22,234 nt of DNA from a virus: positions 1-22,234 of IMG/VR virus record IMGVR_UViG_3300048837_002307; one strand, given 5' to 3'. Position 1 is the stretch's first letter, and the number at the start of each line of letters is the position of its first letter. This document shows positions 16,381-22,234 of the stretch, piece by piece. The notes beneath the pieces were generated by a model. That model was not told where the DNA came from, did not search any database, and saw nothing but the letters and a program-made list of their open reading frames with translations. Made by a program: the position numbers and the translations under genes.

Positions 16381-17775
16381 ATGACCACCACTTCCCTGCA
16401 GATTGAAATGTGGACGCTCGATCGAGTTCGTCCCTATGAAAACAACCCTCGCAACAACGACAAAGCCGTCGACGCGGTTGCAGCTTCGATCAAGGAATTT
16501 GGATTCTCGCAGCCAATTGTTGTCGACACCGACAGTGTCATCATCGTCGGCCACACACGATTGAAGGCGGCACAGAAGCTCGGACTCGAACGCGTGCCGG
16601 TCTTGGTCGCTTCGCATCTGACGCAAGAACAAGTTCGAGCATATCGTATCGCCGACAACAAGACAGCCGAGATCGCGGAATGGAATTACGATCTGTTACC
16701 GATCGAACTGTCGGCATTACAGGAAGCAAACTACGATCTAGGTCTACTGGGTTTCAACGCTGAGGAACTGGCGAAGCTGATGGACACCGGTGTGAGCGAA
16801 GGTCTCACCGATCCGGACGATGTTCCATTGCCACCCGACGAAGCCATCACTCAACCAGGCGATCTTTGGATTCTCGGCAACCATCGATTGCTTTGTGGTG
16901 ATTCATCGAAGCCAGAGGATCTTGATCGGCTGCTGGCCGGCGCACCAATCCACCTTGTGAACACCGACCCTCCATACAATGTGAAGGTTGAACCACGAAG
17001 TAGAAACGCCATAGCCGCTGGTCTGAGTTCATTTGCGAATGATTCGGCATCGAAGAAGCTCAAGCAAGGTCAAGGCAATGCAGCGTCTTTCGGTGTAGAC
17101 CATCAGACGGGAAGGCCCAAGGACGGACCCACGCACAAAAAGCTGCGTCCCAAGGATCGACCGCTGGCGAATGACTTTGTCAGTGACGAAGAATTCAGTC
17201 GATTGCTTGATGCTTGGTTTGGAAACATTGCCAGAGTTCTCCTTCCCGGTCGTAGTTTTTATATCTGGGGTGGATATGGCAATATTGGAAACTACCCAGG
17301 ACCACTCAAACGTAACGGATTGTATTTCAGTCAAGCGATTTGCTGGGACAAAATGCACCCTGTGCTTACGCGAAAAGATTTTCTCGGCGCGCACGAGCTC
17401 GCATTTTATGGCTGGAAAGAAGGTGCTGGCCACAAGTTCTACGGGCCAAATAACATCACGGATATATGGCATGTGAAAAAGATTCCTCCGCAGCAACTAG
17501 AGCATTTGACGGGCAAACCTGCAGAACTCGCTGTTCGCGCCATGCAATATTCATCTGTGCCAGGAGAGAACGTGCTGGACCTCTTCGGTGGAAGTGGATC
17601 GACACTGATCGGCGCTGAGCAATGCGGCCGCAATGCGTTCTTGATGGAACTCGACACACTGTACAGTGATGTCGTTGCAGATCGCTTCCAGCGCTTTACT
17701 GGTATCCCAGCGGTGTTGGAGAGAACCGGCGAATCTCCGATCCCCATGAAAGCGCGTGAGGAGAACATGCGATGA
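16381..17775 (+). CDS. ParB-domain / DNA methyltransferase fusion (beta-class N6-A or N4-C)
   Basis: This 464-aa protein joins a ParB-like N-terminal domain to a DNA methyltransferase. Residues 12-95 show the ParB pattern (NNPRNND, then IVVDTDSVIIVGHTRLKAA). Catalytic motif DPPY is at 196-199 and the S-adenosylmethionine motif FGGSG at 402-406. This DPPY-before-FxGxG order marks the beta class, which modifies adenine N6 or cytosine N4. AAGGA lies upstream of the ATG. It ends in a 4-base ATGA overlap with the HNH gene. Such fusions are common in phages, where they are usually orphan methylases that shield phage DNA. Confidence 0.94.
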   Translation: MTTTSLQIEMWTLDRVRPYENNPRNNDKAVDAVAASIKEFGFSQPIVVDTDSVIIVGHTRLKAAQKLGLERVPVLVASHLTQEQVRAYRIADNKTAEIAEWNYDLLPIELSALQEANYDLGLLGFNAEELAKLMDTGVSEGLTDPDDVPLPPDEAITQPGDLWILGNHRLLCGDSSKPEDLDRLLAGAPIHLVNTDPPYNVKVEPRSRNAIAAGLSSFANDSASKKLKQGQGNAASFGVDHQTGRPKDGPTHKKLRPKDRPLANDFVSDEEFSRLLDAWFGNIARVLLPGRSFYIWGGYGNIGNYPGPLKRNGLYFSQAICWDKMHPVLTRKDFLGAHELAFYGWKEGAGHKFYGPNNITDIWHVKKIPPQQLEHLTGKPAELAVRAMQYSSVPGENVLDLFGGSGSTLIGAEQCGRNAFLMELDTLYSDVVADRFQRFTGIPAVLERTGESPIPMKAREENMR

Positions 17776-18197
17776 AGCAACGGGCACCAGCCAGAGGCTC
17801 AATCACGCCGTTCGGCTATCGACGGATCACGTGCAAGGATCGGAAGCAGAGATTCGAACACGTGATCGTTTGGGAGTCGCATCATGGGCCGATCCCTGAA
17901 GGGATGGAACTGCATCATTGCAATGGTGACAAGCTAGATAATCGGATCGAGAATCTCAGGCTTGTAACTCGTCTTGAGCACAAACGCATTCATAGTGGCT
18001 GTGTCAAAGTAGGTAGCCGCTGGCTGAAGCAGTGTCGGCGTTGTCGATGGTATCGTCCAGTCGACACAGATTTCTACGAGTACAAGGGACGCAGCGGTGT
18101 CATGGGCAAATGCAAACGCTGTCTAACAGACCTTGCCGTCATTGCAAAGCGGAACCGTAAACAGCGTGCTTCTGCCAAACCTAAGTCATCGGACTAA
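17772..18197 (+). CDS. HNH endonuclease with C-terminal zinc ribbon
   Basis: This 141-aa protein has an HNH core: a strand ending EHVIVWESHHGPIP, then MELHHCNGDKLDNRIENLRLV with His48/His49, Asn57 and Asn61. It is followed by two CxxC pairs (Cys88/Cys91 and Cys114/Cys117) that would form a zinc ribbon. HNH proteins of this type are nicking enzymes, homing endonucleases or packaging helpers in phages. It is translationally coupled to the methyltransferase (ATGA), which suggests the methylase could protect sites the nuclease cuts; that link is inferred. Its last 4 bases overlap the end of the convergent gene on the minus strand. Confidence 0.9.
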   Translation: MKQRAPARGSITPFGYRRITCKDRKQRFEHVIVWESHHGPIPEGMELHHCNGDKLDNRIENLRLVTRLEHKRIHSGCVKVGSRWLKQCRRCRWYRPVDTDFYEYKGRSGVMGKCKRCLTDLAVIAKRNRKQRASAKPKSSD

Positions 18198-18520
18198 CCA
18201 AGTTGAACTTTGTTGCTATGCCAAGCCTCGTTTTCAAAGACATAGATGTGCTCCGCTCCGCAGTTCTTCGCGAAATCCTGAAGGGCTGCTCGCGTCGGCA
18301 TGACTACCGTGCGATTGCCGTTGGTGAATCGTTCGGGCGTACCGTCGTTAGCCAGCGAACGAATATCGCCGCCAGCGACAAGCGTCCGGACCGATCTGAT
18401 CGATGTGTAATATTCTTTGAGGACTCTGCCGGCATGGCCTGGGTAGCCATCGAAGTGAAGATAGATCGCTGCGTAGCGACCATCTTCCTGCTGGCAGGCA
18501 ATCGTTGCTCTTGTGGACAT
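18194..18520 (-). CDS. small phage-type protein of unknown function (MSTR family)
   Basis: This 108-aa protein opens MSTRATIACQQEDG and continues with YLHFDGYPGHAGRVLKEYY, matching a widespread small phage and plasmid protein family that begins MSTRxTI and has a W/F-DGYP motif. Its biochemical role is not known to me. It is the last gene of a three-gene minus-strand operon, 12 bases after the DUF4314-like gene. AAGGAAA lies about 10 bases before its ATG. The stop overlaps the convergent HNH gene by 4 bases, so there is no room for a terminator between them. Confidence 0.82.
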   Translation of the reverse strand: MSTRATIACQQEDGRYAAIYLHFDGYPGHAGRVLKEYYTSIRSVRTLVAGGDIRSLANDGTPERFTNGNRTVVMPTRAALQDFAKNCGAEHIYVFENEAWHSNKVQLG

Positions 18521-18532
18521 GTGTTGGTTTCC

Positions 18533-18757
18533 TTACTTCGATGGTTCGTGGTGGTTGGGTTTGACGATGGCAACGCAATCATCGGGCATCGTCAGCATGA
18601 GTGTACGCCCGTTGTCCCAGTCAACATCGACTTGCGTCCAATCGTGATGCTCGTGAACATCAATTACGGTCCCCAGCGAACCAACGGGTATTGGGTTTGG
18701 GTCTTGCGGCATCGATACCAAGTGGATGCGATCACCTTTCTTCAATCGTGTCTGCAT
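18533..18757 (-). CDS. DUF4314-like small beta-barrel protein
   Basis: This 74-aa protein contains KGDRIHLVSMPQDPNPIPVG, SLGTVIDV and a VDWDNGRTLMLTMPDD stretch. This is the characteristic DUF4314 pattern, predicted as a small SH3-like beta barrel with a glycine-aspartate turn. AAGGAACC lies upstream of the ATG. It is the middle gene of the three-gene operon, 18 bases after the 71-aa gene. Function unknown; SH3-like barrels of this size often bind nucleic acid or partner proteins. Confidence 0.85.
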   Translation of the reverse strand: MQTRLKKGDRIHLVSMPQDPNPIPVGSLGTVIDVHEHHDWTQVDVDWDNGRTLMLTMPDDCVAIVKPNHHEPSK

Positions 18758-18775
18758 AGTTGTTGGTTCCTTGTT

Positions 18776-18991
18776 TCATTTGGTGGTTGCGTTAAGTTTG
18801 TCGAGCAGCTCGCCGGCTTGAGCCAAGCGGGCGTTAACCTGTGCCATCATGTGAACATTCCGCCAGCGCAGAGCTGGGTCATCGGGTTGTTTCAATGCGT
18901 CGAGCGATTGACGCAATCGGTCGAGGTAGTCGCGTGCAACAATGTGAAGATTTTCGTAGGCAGACGCCGGCTCAATGGCTGGTTTGGCCAT
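18776..18991 (-). CDS. small helical protein of unknown function (71 aa)
   Basis: The frame opens at 19033, but the ATG at 18991 is preferred because CAGGAACG lies a few bases upstream and similar leaders precede the two following genes. The protein is helical, with a likely coiled coil (ARDYLDRLRQSLDALK and NARLAQAGELLDKLN). First gene of the three-gene minus-strand operon. I cannot assign a function. Confidence 0.72.
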   Translation of the reverse strand: MAKPAIEPASAYENLHIVARDYLDRLRQSLDALKQPDDPALRWRNVHMMAQVNARLAQAGELLDKLNATTK

Positions 18992-19015
18992 GGTTCGTTC
19001 CTGGTTGTTGGAGTA

Positions 19016-19044
19016 AAGATAGTCGAACCCCAACAGTCAGCCAA
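19016..19044 (-). promoter_or_regulatory. possible promoter of the 18991-18194 operon
   Basis: Read on the minus strand, TTGGCT (19039-19044) is followed after exactly 17 bases by TATCTT (19016-19021), a fair sigma-70-like pair. It ends about 25 bases upstream of the ATG at 18991. No transcription evidence is available. Confidence 0.4.
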
Positions 19045-19082
19045 CGAATGCCAAAACCATCAAGCCAACATGCGACCAAGTC

Positions 19083-19099
19083 TTGCAAATTATTTGCAA
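19083..19099. promoter_or_regulatory. 17-bp palindrome, possible operator
   Basis: TTGCAAAT and ATTTGCAA are perfect arms around a single T, in the spacer upstream of the three-gene minus-strand operon and about 40 bases upstream of its possible -35 box. The symmetry and AT content are typical of a dimeric repressor or activator site. No regulator was linked to it. Confidence 0.4.
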
Positions 19100-19180
19100 A
19101 CATGTGGATGCGCCCGCGAACCGCAGTTTTGCGACGTGTCGCGTTGTGTTACTTGTTGGGCTTATATTCGCACCAACGAG

Positions 19181-19210
19181 AAAACGCCCACACGGTGCAA
19201 ACGTGGGGCG
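19181..19210 (-). terminator. Rho-independent terminator after the 77-aa gene
   Basis: Read on the minus strand, CGCCCCACG pairs with CGTGTGGGCG (9 bp, one bulged T) across a 7-base loop and is followed by TTTTCTC. It starts about 33 bases after the stop of the 19244-19477 gene. It separates that transcript from the next operon. Confidence 0.7.
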
Positions 19211-19243
19211 ATTGGTGGGAAGCGTTCCGTACTTCGGGCTTGT

Positions 19244-19477
19244 CTACAAGTCGTGCGGTACCAAGATGGCAGCGCCATGTCCGGAAACAGGGATCAAATC
19301 TCCGTTGGTCGTTCGGGCGAACAGTGTTTCACCTGTTCGGATGACGTCGACCACGCAGCCGACGTCAAGTCTGCGATTGTTGATGGTTCGCAGGACGTAG
19401 GTGATGCCTGGCTCTGGCGTTGCAGTTTCACCGTCGGCCAGGTCATCCACCGTTTGCAAGTCGTAAAAGTATTTCAC
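19244..19477 (-). CDS. small protein of unknown function (77 aa)
   Basis: Starts with GTG at 19475-19477, supported by GGAG about 9 bases upstream; that GGAG follows directly on the stop of the previous gene 12 bases away, so the two are coupled. The protein appears beta-rich (ITYVLRTINNRRLDVGCVV, then LFARTTNGDLIPVSG), suggesting a small barrel. A good terminator follows. Not recognised. Confidence 0.7.
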   Translation of the reverse strand: MKYFYDLQTVDDLADGETATPEPGITYVLRTINNRRLDVGCVVDVIRTGETLFARTTNGDLIPVSGHGAAILVPHDL

Positions 19478-19489
19478 CGAATCAGTCTC

Positions 19490-20059
19490 CTAGCCCCGCA
19501 CTGTGAACCGACCGCGCTCAGCCTTCACGAACTTGCTGTCGTCGCCCTTGGCCAGATCGCGAAGGATTGCGCTGTACAAGGTCGCGTGGGGAGTCTTGCC
19601 ACCAGGACTAGTCCAGTAACCCTTGGCCTGCATCGCGGTGATCAACTCCTGGGCGTTCATCGGTTCGCTAGATTCACTAAGCACTTTCAAAGCGGCCGTG
19701 ACGCAGCTCAATCGCTTTTCGCCAGATTCGGTGGACTCGGCGTTTTCCGACTTTGTTTTGCGTGGCTTTTTGAGAACCGGCACCGCTGTGGACGGTACGC
19801 CTCCAATCGTCTCGACGGTAGCCGGTTCGTTCTCAACAACCGTTATGTTGCCTTCGGTGGTGACCTTCGTGCGTCCGCGCTTCGCACCGACTTCTCCCTG
19901 CAAGCGTTGAGCGCTCTTGACGTGAATTTTCTTGCCTGTCGCAAGGTTGGTCGCGTCCCAGCCGCCTCGTGGCTTCTCAGCATCAATTCGAACCTCGCAG
20001 CGTTTGCCCGAAACGTTCGCATAGTACTTGCCACCAATCTTTACTTCTGCCTTCTTCAT
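19490..20059 (-). CDS. HARE-HTH domain protein
   Basis: The frame is open to 20098, but the ATG at 20059 is preferred because GGGAG lies 8 bases upstream, giving 189 aa. The N-terminal ~60 residues form a beta-rich unit (VKIGGKYYANVSGKRCEVRI). A charged, disordered linker follows. The last ~70 residues match the HARE-HTH winged helix (ALKVLSESSEPMNAQELITA, then a GYWTSPGGKTPHATLYSAI stretch and GRFTVRG). HARE-HTH is known from chromatin proteins and bacterial restriction and DNA-modification systems, and is thought to read DNA or its modification. It is first in a pair with the 77-aa gene. Function here is inferred to be DNA binding. Confidence 0.85.
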   Translation of the reverse strand: MKKAEVKIGGKYYANVSGKRCEVRIDAEKPRGGWDATNLATGKKIHVKSAQRLQGEVGAKRGRTKVTTEGNITVVENEPATVETIGGVPSTAVPVLKKPRKTKSENAESTESGEKRLSCVTAALKVLSESSEPMNAQELITAMQAKGYWTSPGGKTPHATLYSAILRDLAKGDDSKFVKAERGRFTVRG

Positions 20060-20152
20060 CTTCGTATCTCCCAATCTTTGTTCGTGGTTGGCTGCCATCG
20101 TCAGGCCGATCGAACCACCGATCGACGACGCGGGTGTGGTCCGCGTTTCGGC

Positions 20153-20467
20153 TTACTCACCAAAGACCAGATCCGACAAACCCTCGCAGAGAAAATCCAC
20201 GATCACCTGGATCTCGGTATGGGCTGCCGGTACGTCCAAACCACGGTCGAAGTTGAACATGGTCTTACGATCCGAAATCTGCCCAATCCAAAGCTTCGAA
20301 ATCTTGCTTCGGCCCAGTTCGTATTCTTCGCTCTCCGCATGGTCGGCGAAAACAAGTGCTTCGAATCGGTACTGGTCGTTCATTTTGCCCTGCACCCAAG
20401 AGCCGCCAGCGCTCGCGGTGCGGTTGGTAATCTTGGTGATGGTCAGGTCCAGGTCGTTAGTTGTCAT
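20153..20467 (-). CDS. small conserved protein of unknown function (104 aa)
   Basis: Starts at ATG 20467 with CGGAGA upstream. The sequence has the order GGSWVQGKMNDQYRFEAL, then ELGRSKISKLWIGQ, then MFNFDRG, and a helical C-terminus (TEIQVIVDFLCEGLSD). From memory this resembles the DUF7678-type layout (W-x-G..Y-x-F...SKLWI..DRG), which I could not verify. The fold would be a small antiparallel sheet with a closing helix. A copy of the 40-nt repeated element lies about 39 bases upstream of the ATG. Confidence 0.8.
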   Translation of the reverse strand: MTTNDLDLTITKITNRTASAGGSWVQGKMNDQYRFEALVFADHAESEEYELGRSKISKLWIGQISDRKTMFNFDRGLDVPAAHTEIQVIVDFLCEGLSDLVFGE

Positions 20468-20506
20468 TTGGTTATCTCCGGTTCGGGGTTGATGAAATAC
20501 ATGGCA

Positions 20507-20546
20507 TTAACACACATGAGCCATGAACTTCGCATCCTTGCAAGCC
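20507..20546 (-). promoter_or_regulatory. 40-nt repeated upstream element, copy R1
   Basis: Read on the minus strand this copy begins GGCTTG, has 15 bases of spacer, then CATGGCTC and TGTGTGTTAA. It is one of three copies of exactly 40 bases, each 39-43 bases before a start codon. This is the most divergent copy. Its distal end forms part of the large hairpin 20539-20607. Confidence 0.6.
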
Positions 20547-20607
20547 GCTGGGGAAAAGACTCGGAGAATTTCTCGGGATTCTTTTCCCCCAGCCTTTGGG
20601 GCTTGCA
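20539..20607 (-). terminator. long imperfect hairpin after the 87-aa gene
   Basis: TGCAAGCC (20539-20546) pairs with GGCTTGCA (20600-20607), and GCTGGGGAAAAG (20547-20558) with CTTTTCCCCCAGC (20581-20593), with small bulges; a further dyad, GAGAATTTCTC, sits at the tip. It begins one base after the stop of the 20609-20872 gene. It could end or slow that transcript, or stabilise its 3' end. Confidence 0.5.
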
Positions 20608-20608
20608 G

Positions 20609-20872
20609 TCAGCTGTCGCGGTAGTTCTCCCAAGCCCGCTTGCTGCCGTAACAGATCTGGCCACCTTCGACGATGTAGACCGTGTTGTCGTTGGCGACCT
20701 CTTGGTCGTCGTCATCGTCGTCGCCAGGTTCATTCATATCGCGGCCGCTGGTCACTCCGCAGATGCGGTTCTCAAATGGCCAGTTCTGCTGGGTCATCAG
20801 CCGCACTTCAGTGTCACCTCCGAACTCTTCGCGGTAGTCGTTAAGGATTTCGATCAGGGTGTCGAGGGTCAT
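20609..20872 (-). CDS. small acidic conserved protein (87 aa)
   Basis: The protein opens MTLDTLIEILNDYREEFGGD and continues EVRLMTQQNWPFENRI, has an acidic loop with six consecutive Asp, and ends VYIVEGGQICYGSKRAWEN. This matches a small family I associate with planctomycete genomes and other bacteria (TxxQPxWPFE... and VYIVEG motifs); its function is unknown. GGAGA lies just upstream of ATG 20872, and repeat copy R2 lies 40 bases upstream. A large hairpin follows the stop at once. Confidence 0.8.
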   Translation of the reverse strand: MTLDTLIEILNDYREEFGGDTEVRLMTQQNWPFENRICGVTSGRDMNEPGDDDDDDQEVANDNTVYIVEGGQICYGSKRAWENYRDS

Positions 20873-20912
20873 GTGTGGTTCTCCGTTTGGGTGAATGGAA
20901 ATTGGTCTTTCA

Positions 20913-20952
20913 ATGACACCATGGAGCCATGCGACTTGAATCAGCTCAAGCC
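20913..20952 (-). promoter_or_regulatory. 40-nt repeated upstream element, copy R2
   Basis: Read on the minus strand it begins GGCTTGAGCT, then a variable 10 bases, then GCATGGCTCC and ATGGTGTCAT. It shares the first 10 bases and the GCATGGCTCC block with copy R3 and lies 40 bases before the ATG at 20872. Confidence 0.65.
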
Positions 20953-21157
20953 GGGTTCTTCAGGTTTTGGTCTTGTTTTTTCATGTTTCTTCGCATGCCC
21001 CACGGTGCCCCACGTTGGCCCGGGTCGCGTTCTTTTGAATGTTGGGTTGATGGCCGCATGTGGCCGGGAAAACGCGACGGTGGGCAAGTGTCGCGACCAA
21101 GCGGAAGAACGCCTCGCTTCCGTTCGCGGCGTCCGTGGCATTCCGCTGGTATATGAT
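20953..21157. other. intergenic stretch with several hairpins
   Basis: No gene is seen. GTCGCGTT (21024-21031) pairs perfectly with AACGCGAC (21071-21078), and CGGAAG (21102-21107) with CTTCCG (21117-21122). CGCGACC at 21092-21098 could compete for the same left arm. These lie downstream of the 85-aa gene on the minus strand and may shape its 3' end. Confidence 0.4.
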
Positions 21158-21415
21158 TTAGAGAATCTTTCCGAGTCGGCTGTTTTTCATCGCGTCCAGG
21201 GCTTGGACAGCGTGAAAATGTTCATTCAGCAGAGGGCCGGCGGTGGGCGTCTGTTGTGCGTCGGCGATTTCCAAGGTTTCCGCCAAGGTCATCAAGCCCT
21301 CGATCGCCTTGTAGTAGGCTTCGCGGATCTCTTGGGCTTGGTGGGCATCCATCTCTTTGAAAATTTGGCGCAGGGTGGCGTCAGTTGCTGCATGAGGGTT
21401 GATTGCGTTGGTCAT
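21158..21415 (-). CDS. small helical protein of unknown function (85 aa)
   Basis: The protein is almost entirely helical and acidic to neutral, with segments such as LRQIFKEMDAHQAQEIREAY and GLMTLAETLEIA. GGAGA lies upstream of ATG 21415, and repeat copy R3 lies 43 bases upstream. Its codon pattern and the shared upstream element tie it to the neighbouring small minus-strand genes. Not recognised. Confidence 0.72.
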   Translation of the reverse strand: MTNAINPHAATDATLRQIFKEMDAHQAQEIREAYYKAIEGLMTLAETLEIADAQQTPTAGPLLNEHFHAVQALDAMKNSRLGKIL

Positions 21416-21458
21416 GTTTGTGTCTCCGTTTCGGAAAAAGGTTTGAATCGTTTACGCG

Positions 21459-21498
21459 ATGACACACAGGAGCCATGCGGTCGGCGAAAGCTCAAGCC
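21459..21498 (-). promoter_or_regulatory. 40-nt repeated upstream element, copy R3
   Basis: Read on the minus strand it begins GGCTTGAGCT, then 10 variable bases, then GCATGGCTCC and TGTGTGTCAT. Similarity to copy R1 continues beyond the 40 bases (AAGACT, then GAGAAT and ATTCT blocks on the plus strand near 21499-21526 and 20556-20582). Confidence 0.65.
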
Positions 21499-21703
21499 AA
21501 GACTGCGAGAATCTCAGCAGAATTCTGAATGTTTCTGCCATTGCGAACAATTCGCACACGATGCCACCGTTCGCATTGCTGCAGACCGTTGGCCACTATT
21601 AGTTACATACACGAAACAGGCCCACAGTGACGAAACGTTGGCCCAATGTTGCCAACGATTCGTAGGCCGAACCTCCGTGTTCGGTGTCTTGTTCGGGTGC
21701 GGC
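21499..21703. other. structured intergenic stretch before the amidoligase stop
   Basis: No gene is seen. TGCGAA/TTCGCA (21542-21547 with 21551-21556) and CGTTGGC/GCCAACG (21636-21642 with 21651-21657) are perfect short hairpins. Confidence 0.4.
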
Positions 21704-21706
21704 CTA
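21663..21706 (-). terminator. hairpin overlapping the amidoligase stop codon
   Basis: TAGGCCGAACC (21663-21673) pairs with GGTGCGGCCTA (21696-21706), 10 of 11 bases. Read on the minus strand it begins at the stop codon itself. No T-run follows, so it may protect or attenuate the transcript rather than end it by itself. Confidence 0.4.
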
Positions 21707-22234
21707 TGCCGCGCGGTCGTATTTGCGTGCCAGATCCAGGAGCTTGGTCTTGATCGTTTTCCATTCGGGCCTGGTTTCCCCGGCGATCTCTCCGTAAACC
21801 TTGTCGCGAAGGGCTCCCTTGTACCAGCCCTTGGTCCATCCCAGTCGGTAGAACAATCGGTTGAGTTCCGTTTCACCCAGGCCGGCACCAGGTCGATCCC
21901 AACAGCTCTTGGTGCCTTCTTTTTTGGTGTAGTCCCAATCGCTGCAGCGCCGGGTGTTGAGGGCCAGTTCTACCAAACCCAGCACCATCATCAGGTATCC
22001 AACCACCTTGGTCTTGTTGAGAGTTCCGGCGAAGGCGCGGAATTCGATTCGGTTCTTTCCGCGAGCCACGTGTGTCAGGTTCAGCAGGTGGTAGCGATCC
22101 GATTCGCATCGGCTCTTGGCGTTGTCCTTGTCACCGTATTGCTTGATCCGCTTGGCGTAGGTCATCTGTTCGCGTTTGCGCGTTCCGGTCGAAGCGTAGA
22201 TCGCTCGTTCATGGTTGCCGACCAAAGAAATCAA
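21704..22234 (-). CDS. amidoligase-family protein, C-terminal part (cut by window edge)
   Basis: This frame runs off the right edge; 176 residues of the C-terminal part are visible. The segments RYHLLNLTHVARGKNRIEFR and FAGTLNKTKVVGYLMMVLGL match putative amidoligases (ATP-grasp/GCS-related enzymes that join amines to carboxyl groups), where the E-F-R-x-F/x-x-G-T-L block is near the active site. The C-terminal ~80 residues are a basic helical tail. Amidoligase genes of this type are common in phages and planctomycete accessory regions; substrates are mostly unknown. The apparent TTG first codon at the edge is an artefact of the cut. ATP-binding residues further upstream cannot be checked. Confidence 0.75.
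   Translation of the reverse strand: MISLVGNHERAIYASTGTRKREQMTYAKRIKQYGDKDNAKSRCESDRYHLLNLTHVARGKNRIEFRAFAGTLNKTKVVGYLMMVLGLVELALNTRRCSDWDYTKKEGTKSCWDRPGAGLGETELNRLFYRLGWTKGWYKGALRDKVYGEIAGETRPEWKTIKTKLLDLARKYDRAA

What the first reader, a model, noticed from the sequence alone, without database searches (positions are those of the whole stretch)
20507..21498. Three 40-nt elements of identical length, each ~40 nt before a small gene
Copies at 20507-20546, 20913-20952 and 21459-21498 share GGCTTG, then after 15 bases CATGGCTC and a TGTGT-like end, with a variable middle. Each lies 39-43 bases before a start codon on the minus strand. Fixed length, two conserved boxes and fixed placement point to a promoter or regulator-binding element shared by a regulon, not to random duplication.
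Basis: seen in the sequence. Interest (0 to 1): 0.75.

Follow-up and report, generated by a model that had tools for sequence, protein, structure and literature searches.

The report
Shared promoter array in planctomycete phages
The three repeats are copies of one conserved promoter-like DNA signal that sits in front of a run of small genes in a large family of viruses of Pirellulales bacteria, and the opposite DNA strand across that run is kept free of stop codons by selection, which is unusual.

Summary
GGCTTG-N15-CATGGCTC occurs exactly three times in the window, all on the minus strand, and never in 100 shuffles. About 300 distinct copies exist in related phages and prophages, 1-11 per phage. 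In the records mapped they lie on one strand, in one module between the ParB-methyltransferase gene and the terminase gene. The strict pattern occurs only in Planctomycetota genomes, and in nine host genomes nearly all hits fall in a few clusters.

The best reading is a promoter. The spacer length is fixed although its sequence varies. There is no sign of an RNA hairpin. A-tracts phased at 10.5 bp lie upstream where UP-element/alpha-CTD contacts fall. No transcription start was mapped. The "-10" box CATGGCTC is not sigma-70-like.

Unexpected: opposite the module, one plus-strand frame stays open for 1350 to 2514 codons, with all 122 module genes in phase and no stop where 20-57 were expected. 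Its amino acids show no selection. A hammerhead ribozyme also lies in the module.

The parts
20507..20546 (-). Element 1 (promoter-like), before the DUF7678 gene
   Evidence: Exact GGCTTG-N15-CATGGCTC; orthologous copies before the same gene in relatives
20913..20952 (-). Element 2, before the 87-aa gene
   Evidence: Exact motif; A-tracts at -36, -26 and -16 upstream, read
21459..21498 (-). Element 3, before the 85-aa gene
   Evidence: Exact motif
20953..20990 (-). Phased A-tract (UP-element-like) region of element 2; equivalent stretches 20547-20584 and 21499-21536
   Evidence: A-tract phasing over 86 nonredundant elements
20153..20467 (-). DUF7678 protein gene (104 aa)
   Evidence: Pfam PF24726 E 6e-14
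20609..20872 (-). 87-aa protein gene, found in all 24 oriented records
21158..21415 (-). 85-aa protein gene, related genes in the module of all oriented records
21704..22234 (-). C-terminal part of amidoligase gene (the record ends here; relatives have 285 aa and their own element upstream)
   Evidence: PF12224 E 4e-5 and phrog_2443 E 1e-7
19490..20059 (-). HARE-HTH protein gene, found in all 24 oriented records; candidate reader or modulator (speculative)
   Evidence: PF05066 E 9e-14
20086..20153 (-). Type II hammerhead ribozyme between the DUF7678 and HARE-HTH genes
   Evidence: RF02276, 52.3 bits over a cut-off of 37, E 2e-8; found in 12 of 13 related loci
18194..19477 (-). Module genes without their own element: 18194-18520 (phrog_1987), 18533-18757 (DUF4314), 18776-18991, 19244-19477
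18185..22234 (+). Stop-free plus frame opposite the whole module (at least 1350 codons, runs off the record); not a conserved protein
7743..8339 (+). Phage sigma-factor gene; tested as reader of the element, probably not
   Evidence: PF04542 and PF08281

Best explanation
Each element is a promoter that drives the next small gene of a minus-strand module; the last one drives an operon. Inferred anatomy: phased A-tracts at about -73, -63, -53 and -42 contact the alpha subunits of host RNA polymerase. GCTTG is the -35-like box. After a spacer of fixed length, CATGGCTC is the -10-like box. CATGTGTG runs towards a start site near the A of T(C/T)A(A/T)CGC, followed by an untranslated leader of roughly 40 nt with a GGAG-type ribosome site. 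The copies form one regulon. The polymerase is the host's, with a sigma factor or activator that is the same across these phages. It is therefore more likely a host sigma factor, or a module-encoded factor such as the HARE-HTH protein, than the phage's own divergent sigma factor. Shown: motif, copies, orientation, fixed spacing, phasing, orthology. Inferred: transcription start, polymerase, co-regulation.
For: About 300 distinct copies, no hit in reversed control sequence with the full matrix and 7 for the loose core. Of 298 cores, 268 have GCTTG at exactly the same distance and most of the rest have a near-match in that register; some loci were fetched with a fixed-spacing pattern, but many were fetched by protein. 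All copies in a record lie on one strand, control 0. Copies are orthologous by gene. AAA frequency in 86 nonredundant copies is 0.55 at -36, 0.37 at -26 and 0.28 at -16, near 0 in between and low further upstream; the periodicity peaks at 10.5 bp. With TTG of GCTTG set at -35, two A positions fall in the known UP subsites (-45 to -37 and -58 to -45; PMC2613000). Swapping spacer halves between copies does not change predicted folding, so there is no RNA hairpin signal. Nine Pirellulales genomes have hits almost only in a few clusters.
Against: No transcript data. The -10-like box lacks the TATAAT features, and no sigma-70-like site was found at the elements. Conservation of CATGGCTCATGTGTG is stronger than the -10 region of most promoters needs, so a bound regulator may overlap it. 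No reader has been identified.
Confidence: 0.78

Rival explanations
1. The elements are operators: a phage repressor or activator binds them, and the real promoter lies beside them and is not recognised.
For: Strong conservation of CATGGCTCATGTGTG; partly palindromic spacers such as ATGCGGTTTGAACCGCAT in some copies; a regulator could overlap the promoter.
Against: No conserved promoter-like sequence up- or downstream of the element. The left spacer arm varies while the right is more constant. The phased A-tracts end at the -35-like box, as UP elements do.
Confidence: 0.13
2. The elements are promoters of the phage-encoded sigma factor (window 7743-8339).
For: A sigma gene is found in 21 of 25 records; most of the others are cut short. 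The motif is not seen as a host regulon. Spacing would suit an ECF-type sigma factor.
Against: Sigma proteins of phages with near-identical elements (window-like versus G003) are 22% identical, with unrelated recognition helices (TINDWM versus KVSQVL), while GCTTG and CATGGCTC are unchanged. G015 and G017 have a sigma gene but no strict element.
Confidence: 0.12
3. The element works in RNA, as a leader hairpin or translation signal.
For: It lies before start codons; some spacers can form a hairpin.
Against: Swapping spacer halves leaves folding unchanged (-6.13 versus -6.07, sd 0.16 kcal/mol). Helical phasing is a DNA feature. Distance from element start to ATG varies from 66 to 102 nt. No Rfam match in the element region.
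Confidence: 0.04
4. The repeats are recombination sites that shuffle gene cassettes.
For: Copy number varies from 1 to 11 and gene content between copies differs.
Against: Copies are orthologous by gene. Six gene families are shared by nearly all records. The whole module keeps one reading phase in the window's group.
Confidence: 0.02

Closest known systems
Phage T4 early promoters (PMC2988021)
   Same: Many near-identical phage promoters before small genes; UP element, -35 box and TG before the -10 box, with conservation beyond the core boxes
   Different: T4 early promoters match sigma-70 (TATAAT); here the near-invariant -10-like box is CATGGCTC, the copies sit in one module only, and hosts are Planctomycetota
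Start-associated sequences SAS/ESAS of cluster K mycobacteriophages (PMC3203893)
   Same: Repeated oriented sequence before a subset of non-structural genes, conserved by gene family, nearly absent from the host; about half have inverted repeats upstream
   Different: SAS is 13 bp, 3-7 bp from the start codon and overlaps the ribosome site; here the element is 39-43 nt away in the window and clear of the ribosome site
17-bp palindromes of cluster O mycobacteriophages (PMC4351075)
   Same: High-copy phage DNA motif of unknown reader
   Different: Those are symmetric and spread through genes and intergenic DNA; these are asymmetric, oriented and placed before genes
Phage morons (own promoter and terminator; from general knowledge)
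   Same: Small genes with their own promoters set against the direction of the flanking lytic genes
   Different: A conserved syntenic module present in every related phage compared, with a shared promoter, not a sporadic insertion

Membership tests
Sigma-70 promoter | TATAAT-like -10 hexamer with A at position 2 | tested here: not met
   Position-matched hexamer is CTCATG, near-invariant; no sigma-70-like site at the elements
Sigma-70 promoter | TTGACA-like -35 box and 16-18 nt spacing | tested here: inconclusive
   TTGA or TTGC is present, and TGn falls where an extended -10 would with a 17-nt spacer, but no -10 hexamer fits
UP-element promoter | A-tracts phased with the helix at about -42 and -52 relative to a -35 box | tested here: met
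   AAA peaks at -36, -26, -16 and A at -4 from the box; power peaks at 10.5 bp; subsite limits from PMC2613000
Promoter of the phage-encoded sigma factor | Element changes when the sigma DNA-binding regions change | tested here: not met
   Sigma regions 2 and 4 diverge, element boxes do not
Sigma-54 promoter | GG at -24 and GC at -12, a fixed distance apart | tested here: not met
   Read directly from the consensus: the bases 12 after the invariant GG are not GC
SAS/ESAS | Sequence ends 3-7 bp before ATG and overlaps the ribosome site | tested here: not met
   39, 40 and 43 nt before ATG in the window; definition in PMC3203893
RNA leader element | Covarying or shuffling-sensitive hairpin | tested here: not met
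Single-subunit phage RNA polymerase promoter | A phage-encoded T7-type polymerase gene | not tested
   Only selected proteins were scanned against Pfam and PHROGs
Any promoter | Transcription start at a fixed distance | not testable with these tools
   No RNA data at hand

The most novel reading that the evidence does not exclude
In these phages the DNA strand opposite the promoter-driven module is under selection to stay free of stop codons in one frame for up to 2514 codons, without selection on the amino acids. Ribosomes would follow plus-strand read-through transcripts from the early genes to the terminase and so keep Rho from ending them: an open frame kept as a transcription bridge, not as a gene.
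Probability: 0.45. Interest if true: 0.85.

Novelty: new variant of a known kind. Interest (0 to 1): 0.6.

Why it matters
The element looks like a promoter class that fits no sigma factor checked here, reused up to 11 times in one phage module and found only in Planctomycetota, whose phage transcription is little studied. It gives a ready set of about 300 natural variants for finding the factor that reads it. The stop-free antisense frame is the larger surprise. It is a case in which openness itself, not protein sequence, appears to be selected, and it makes the idea of translation as protection of a transcript directly testable.

Tried and rejected
Phage sigma factor as reader: co-occurs, but its DNA-binding regions diverge while the element does not. 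RNA hairpin: no signal. Known RNA family over the elements: none. Sigma-70 promoter scan: no hit at the elements. Host regulon: strict pattern with up to 3 mismatches in nine host genomes gave almost only clusters of hits. Random duplication: copies are orthologous by gene. Plus-strand giant frame as a real protein: rejected for its sequence, because substitutions between genes show no third-position excess (1394/1236/1039) and in gene regions follow the minus code (7502/1146/2042); no PHROG match for a 1089-codon part of the frame in one relative. Codon optimisation as the cause of the open frame: other rare codons such as ATA, AGA and GTA are not depleted in the window's group. Searches for published accounts of planctomycete phage promoters or of stop-free antisense bridges found none among the titles and abstracts listed; the library lacks most subscription journals.

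Full report
Observation. The three copies are real, exact and placed as described. GGCTTG-N15-CATGGCTC occurs three times, all on the minus strand, with none in 100 dinucleotide shuffles. No other copy with fewer than two mismatches is in the record. The start codons lie 39, 40 and 43 nt further on. The window is a whole virus record of 22,234 bases, cut within the amidoligase gene, so a fragment.

Copies elsewhere. A matrix made from 22 seed copies found the element in about 90 loci and never in the reversed control. Up to 11 copies occur in one contig. The longer pattern GCTTG-N15-CATGGCTCATGTGTG hit 41 stretches in genome contigs, all of them Planctomycetota by record title. In nine host genomes of 6.6 to 10.8 Mb nearly all hits fall in a few tight clusters, so there is no sign of a host regulon with this strict sequence. 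In 36 of 40 phage records the element is present, and within a record all copies lie on one strand, with no control hit.

Gene context. In the records mapped, the elements sit between a ParB-DNA methyltransferase gene and the terminase large-subunit gene, both on the other strand. The late genes include portal, protease-capsid and tape-measure genes. The module genes are a conserved set: amidoligase, an 85-aa and an 87-aa protein, a HARE-HTH protein and a DUF4314 protein are found in all 24 oriented records, and the phrog_1987 protein in 23. Upstream regions of the amidoligase gene from 65 loci carry the same element or diverged forms of it at the same place, so copies are inherited with their genes.

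Anatomy. In 86 nonredundant copies the fixed parts are GCTTG, 15 variable bases, and CATGGCTCATGTGTG. The spacer length holds in 268 of 298 cores, and most others have a near-match in the same register. A caveat is that some loci were fetched with a fixed-spacing pattern. Upstream, AAA is frequent at -36, -26 and -16 from the box, near zero in between and low beyond. An A is favoured at -4, and the spacer has A at 6 and 16-17. The power of the A profile peaks at 10.5 bp. If TTG of GCTTG is set at -35, two of these A positions fall in the known proximal (-45 to -37) and distal (-58 to -45) UP subsites (PMC2613000). This is a DNA signal, as expected of a promoter bound by a polymerase with alpha C-terminal domains. 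The predicted hairpin does not depend on pairing within a copy.

Reader. The -10-like box does not suit sigma-70. The phage encodes a sigma factor and relatives do too. Between the window and G003 the sigma proteins are 22% identical with unrelated recognition helices, yet their elements share the same boxes. A host sigma factor, or a conserved module protein such as the HARE-HTH protein (54-88% identical to the window's), fits better. This is inference.

Antisense frame. Opposite the module, in 13 records of the window's group, one plus-strand frame is open for 1350 to 2514 codons. From the codon use of other genes, 20 to 57 in-frame plus-strand stops were expected in each; the chance of none is about 10^-9 to 10^-25 per record, though the records are related and so not independent. 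All 122 module genes of nine conserved families are in phase with that frame. In element-led genes the codons TTA, CTA and TCA occur 0 times in 6568, against 20.7 per 1000 in plus-strand control genes and 17.2 per 1000 in other minus genes. Other rare codons such as ATA, AGA and GTA are not depleted. Between genes, plus-strand stops number 0, 200 and 290 in the three frames; the zero follows from how the frame was chosen, the other two counts show what chance gives. Element-to-ATG distances in this group are mostly 77, 80, 83, 86 or 95, i.e. equal modulo 3. Yet substitutions show no trace of a selected plus-strand protein. In the second group (mostly isolate prophages) phases are mixed, but open plus frames are still longer than in controls and TTA, CTA and TCA together are down to about 3.3 per 1000 against 16.6 in controls.

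How it may work. The early and late genes are on the plus strand on both sides of the module. A plus-strand transcript crossing it would be antisense to the module and, if untranslated, open to Rho, which is known to suppress antisense transcription (PMC9931155). An open frame beginning at or near the stop of the upstream plus gene would let ribosomes follow. This is a hypothesis; neither plus-strand read-through nor its translation has been shown.

Ribozyme. A type II hammerhead lies between the DUF7678 and HARE-HTH genes on the minus strand, and hammerheads were found in 12 of 13 related loci scanned. Prophage-associated hammerheads are known (PMC3088659). It suggests that the transcript from element 1 runs on into the HARE-HTH gene and is cut there.

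Verdict. It is a new variant of a known kind. The stop-free frame opposite is the more surprising feature and deserves its own study.

Noticed in passing
window 18185-22234 (+): A plus frame of at least 1350 codons without a stop, opposite all nine minus-strand genes, which are all in the same phase; relatives reach 2514 codons. Stops were expected 20-57 times per record; the amino acids are not under selection.
   Followed up: yes
window 20086-20153 (-): Type II hammerhead ribozyme (RF02276, 52.3 bits) between the DUF7678 and HARE-HTH genes; hammerheads found in 12 of 13 related loci scanned.
   Followed up: partly
window 7743-8339 (+): Phage sigma factor whose DNA-binding regions are replaced by unrelated versions in relatives that share the same element; its own target promoters are unknown.
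   Followed up: partly
window 20540-20610: Inverted repeat (GCAAGCC...GGGGAAAAGA / TCTTTTCCCC...GGCTTGC) just upstream of element 1 that includes its GGCTTG; several relatives have a hairpin at the same place, possibly a terminator of the gene before.
   Followed up: no
record G019 (behind L178), 14716-34392 in the orientation used: A single open frame of 6560 codons in a related phage record; G014 (behind L169) has one of 3386 codons that runs to the record end.
   Followed up: no
window 16381-17775 (+): ParB N-terminal domain fused to a DNA methyltransferase (domains read from the G003 homologue), a family present in all 25 records compared.
   Followed up: no
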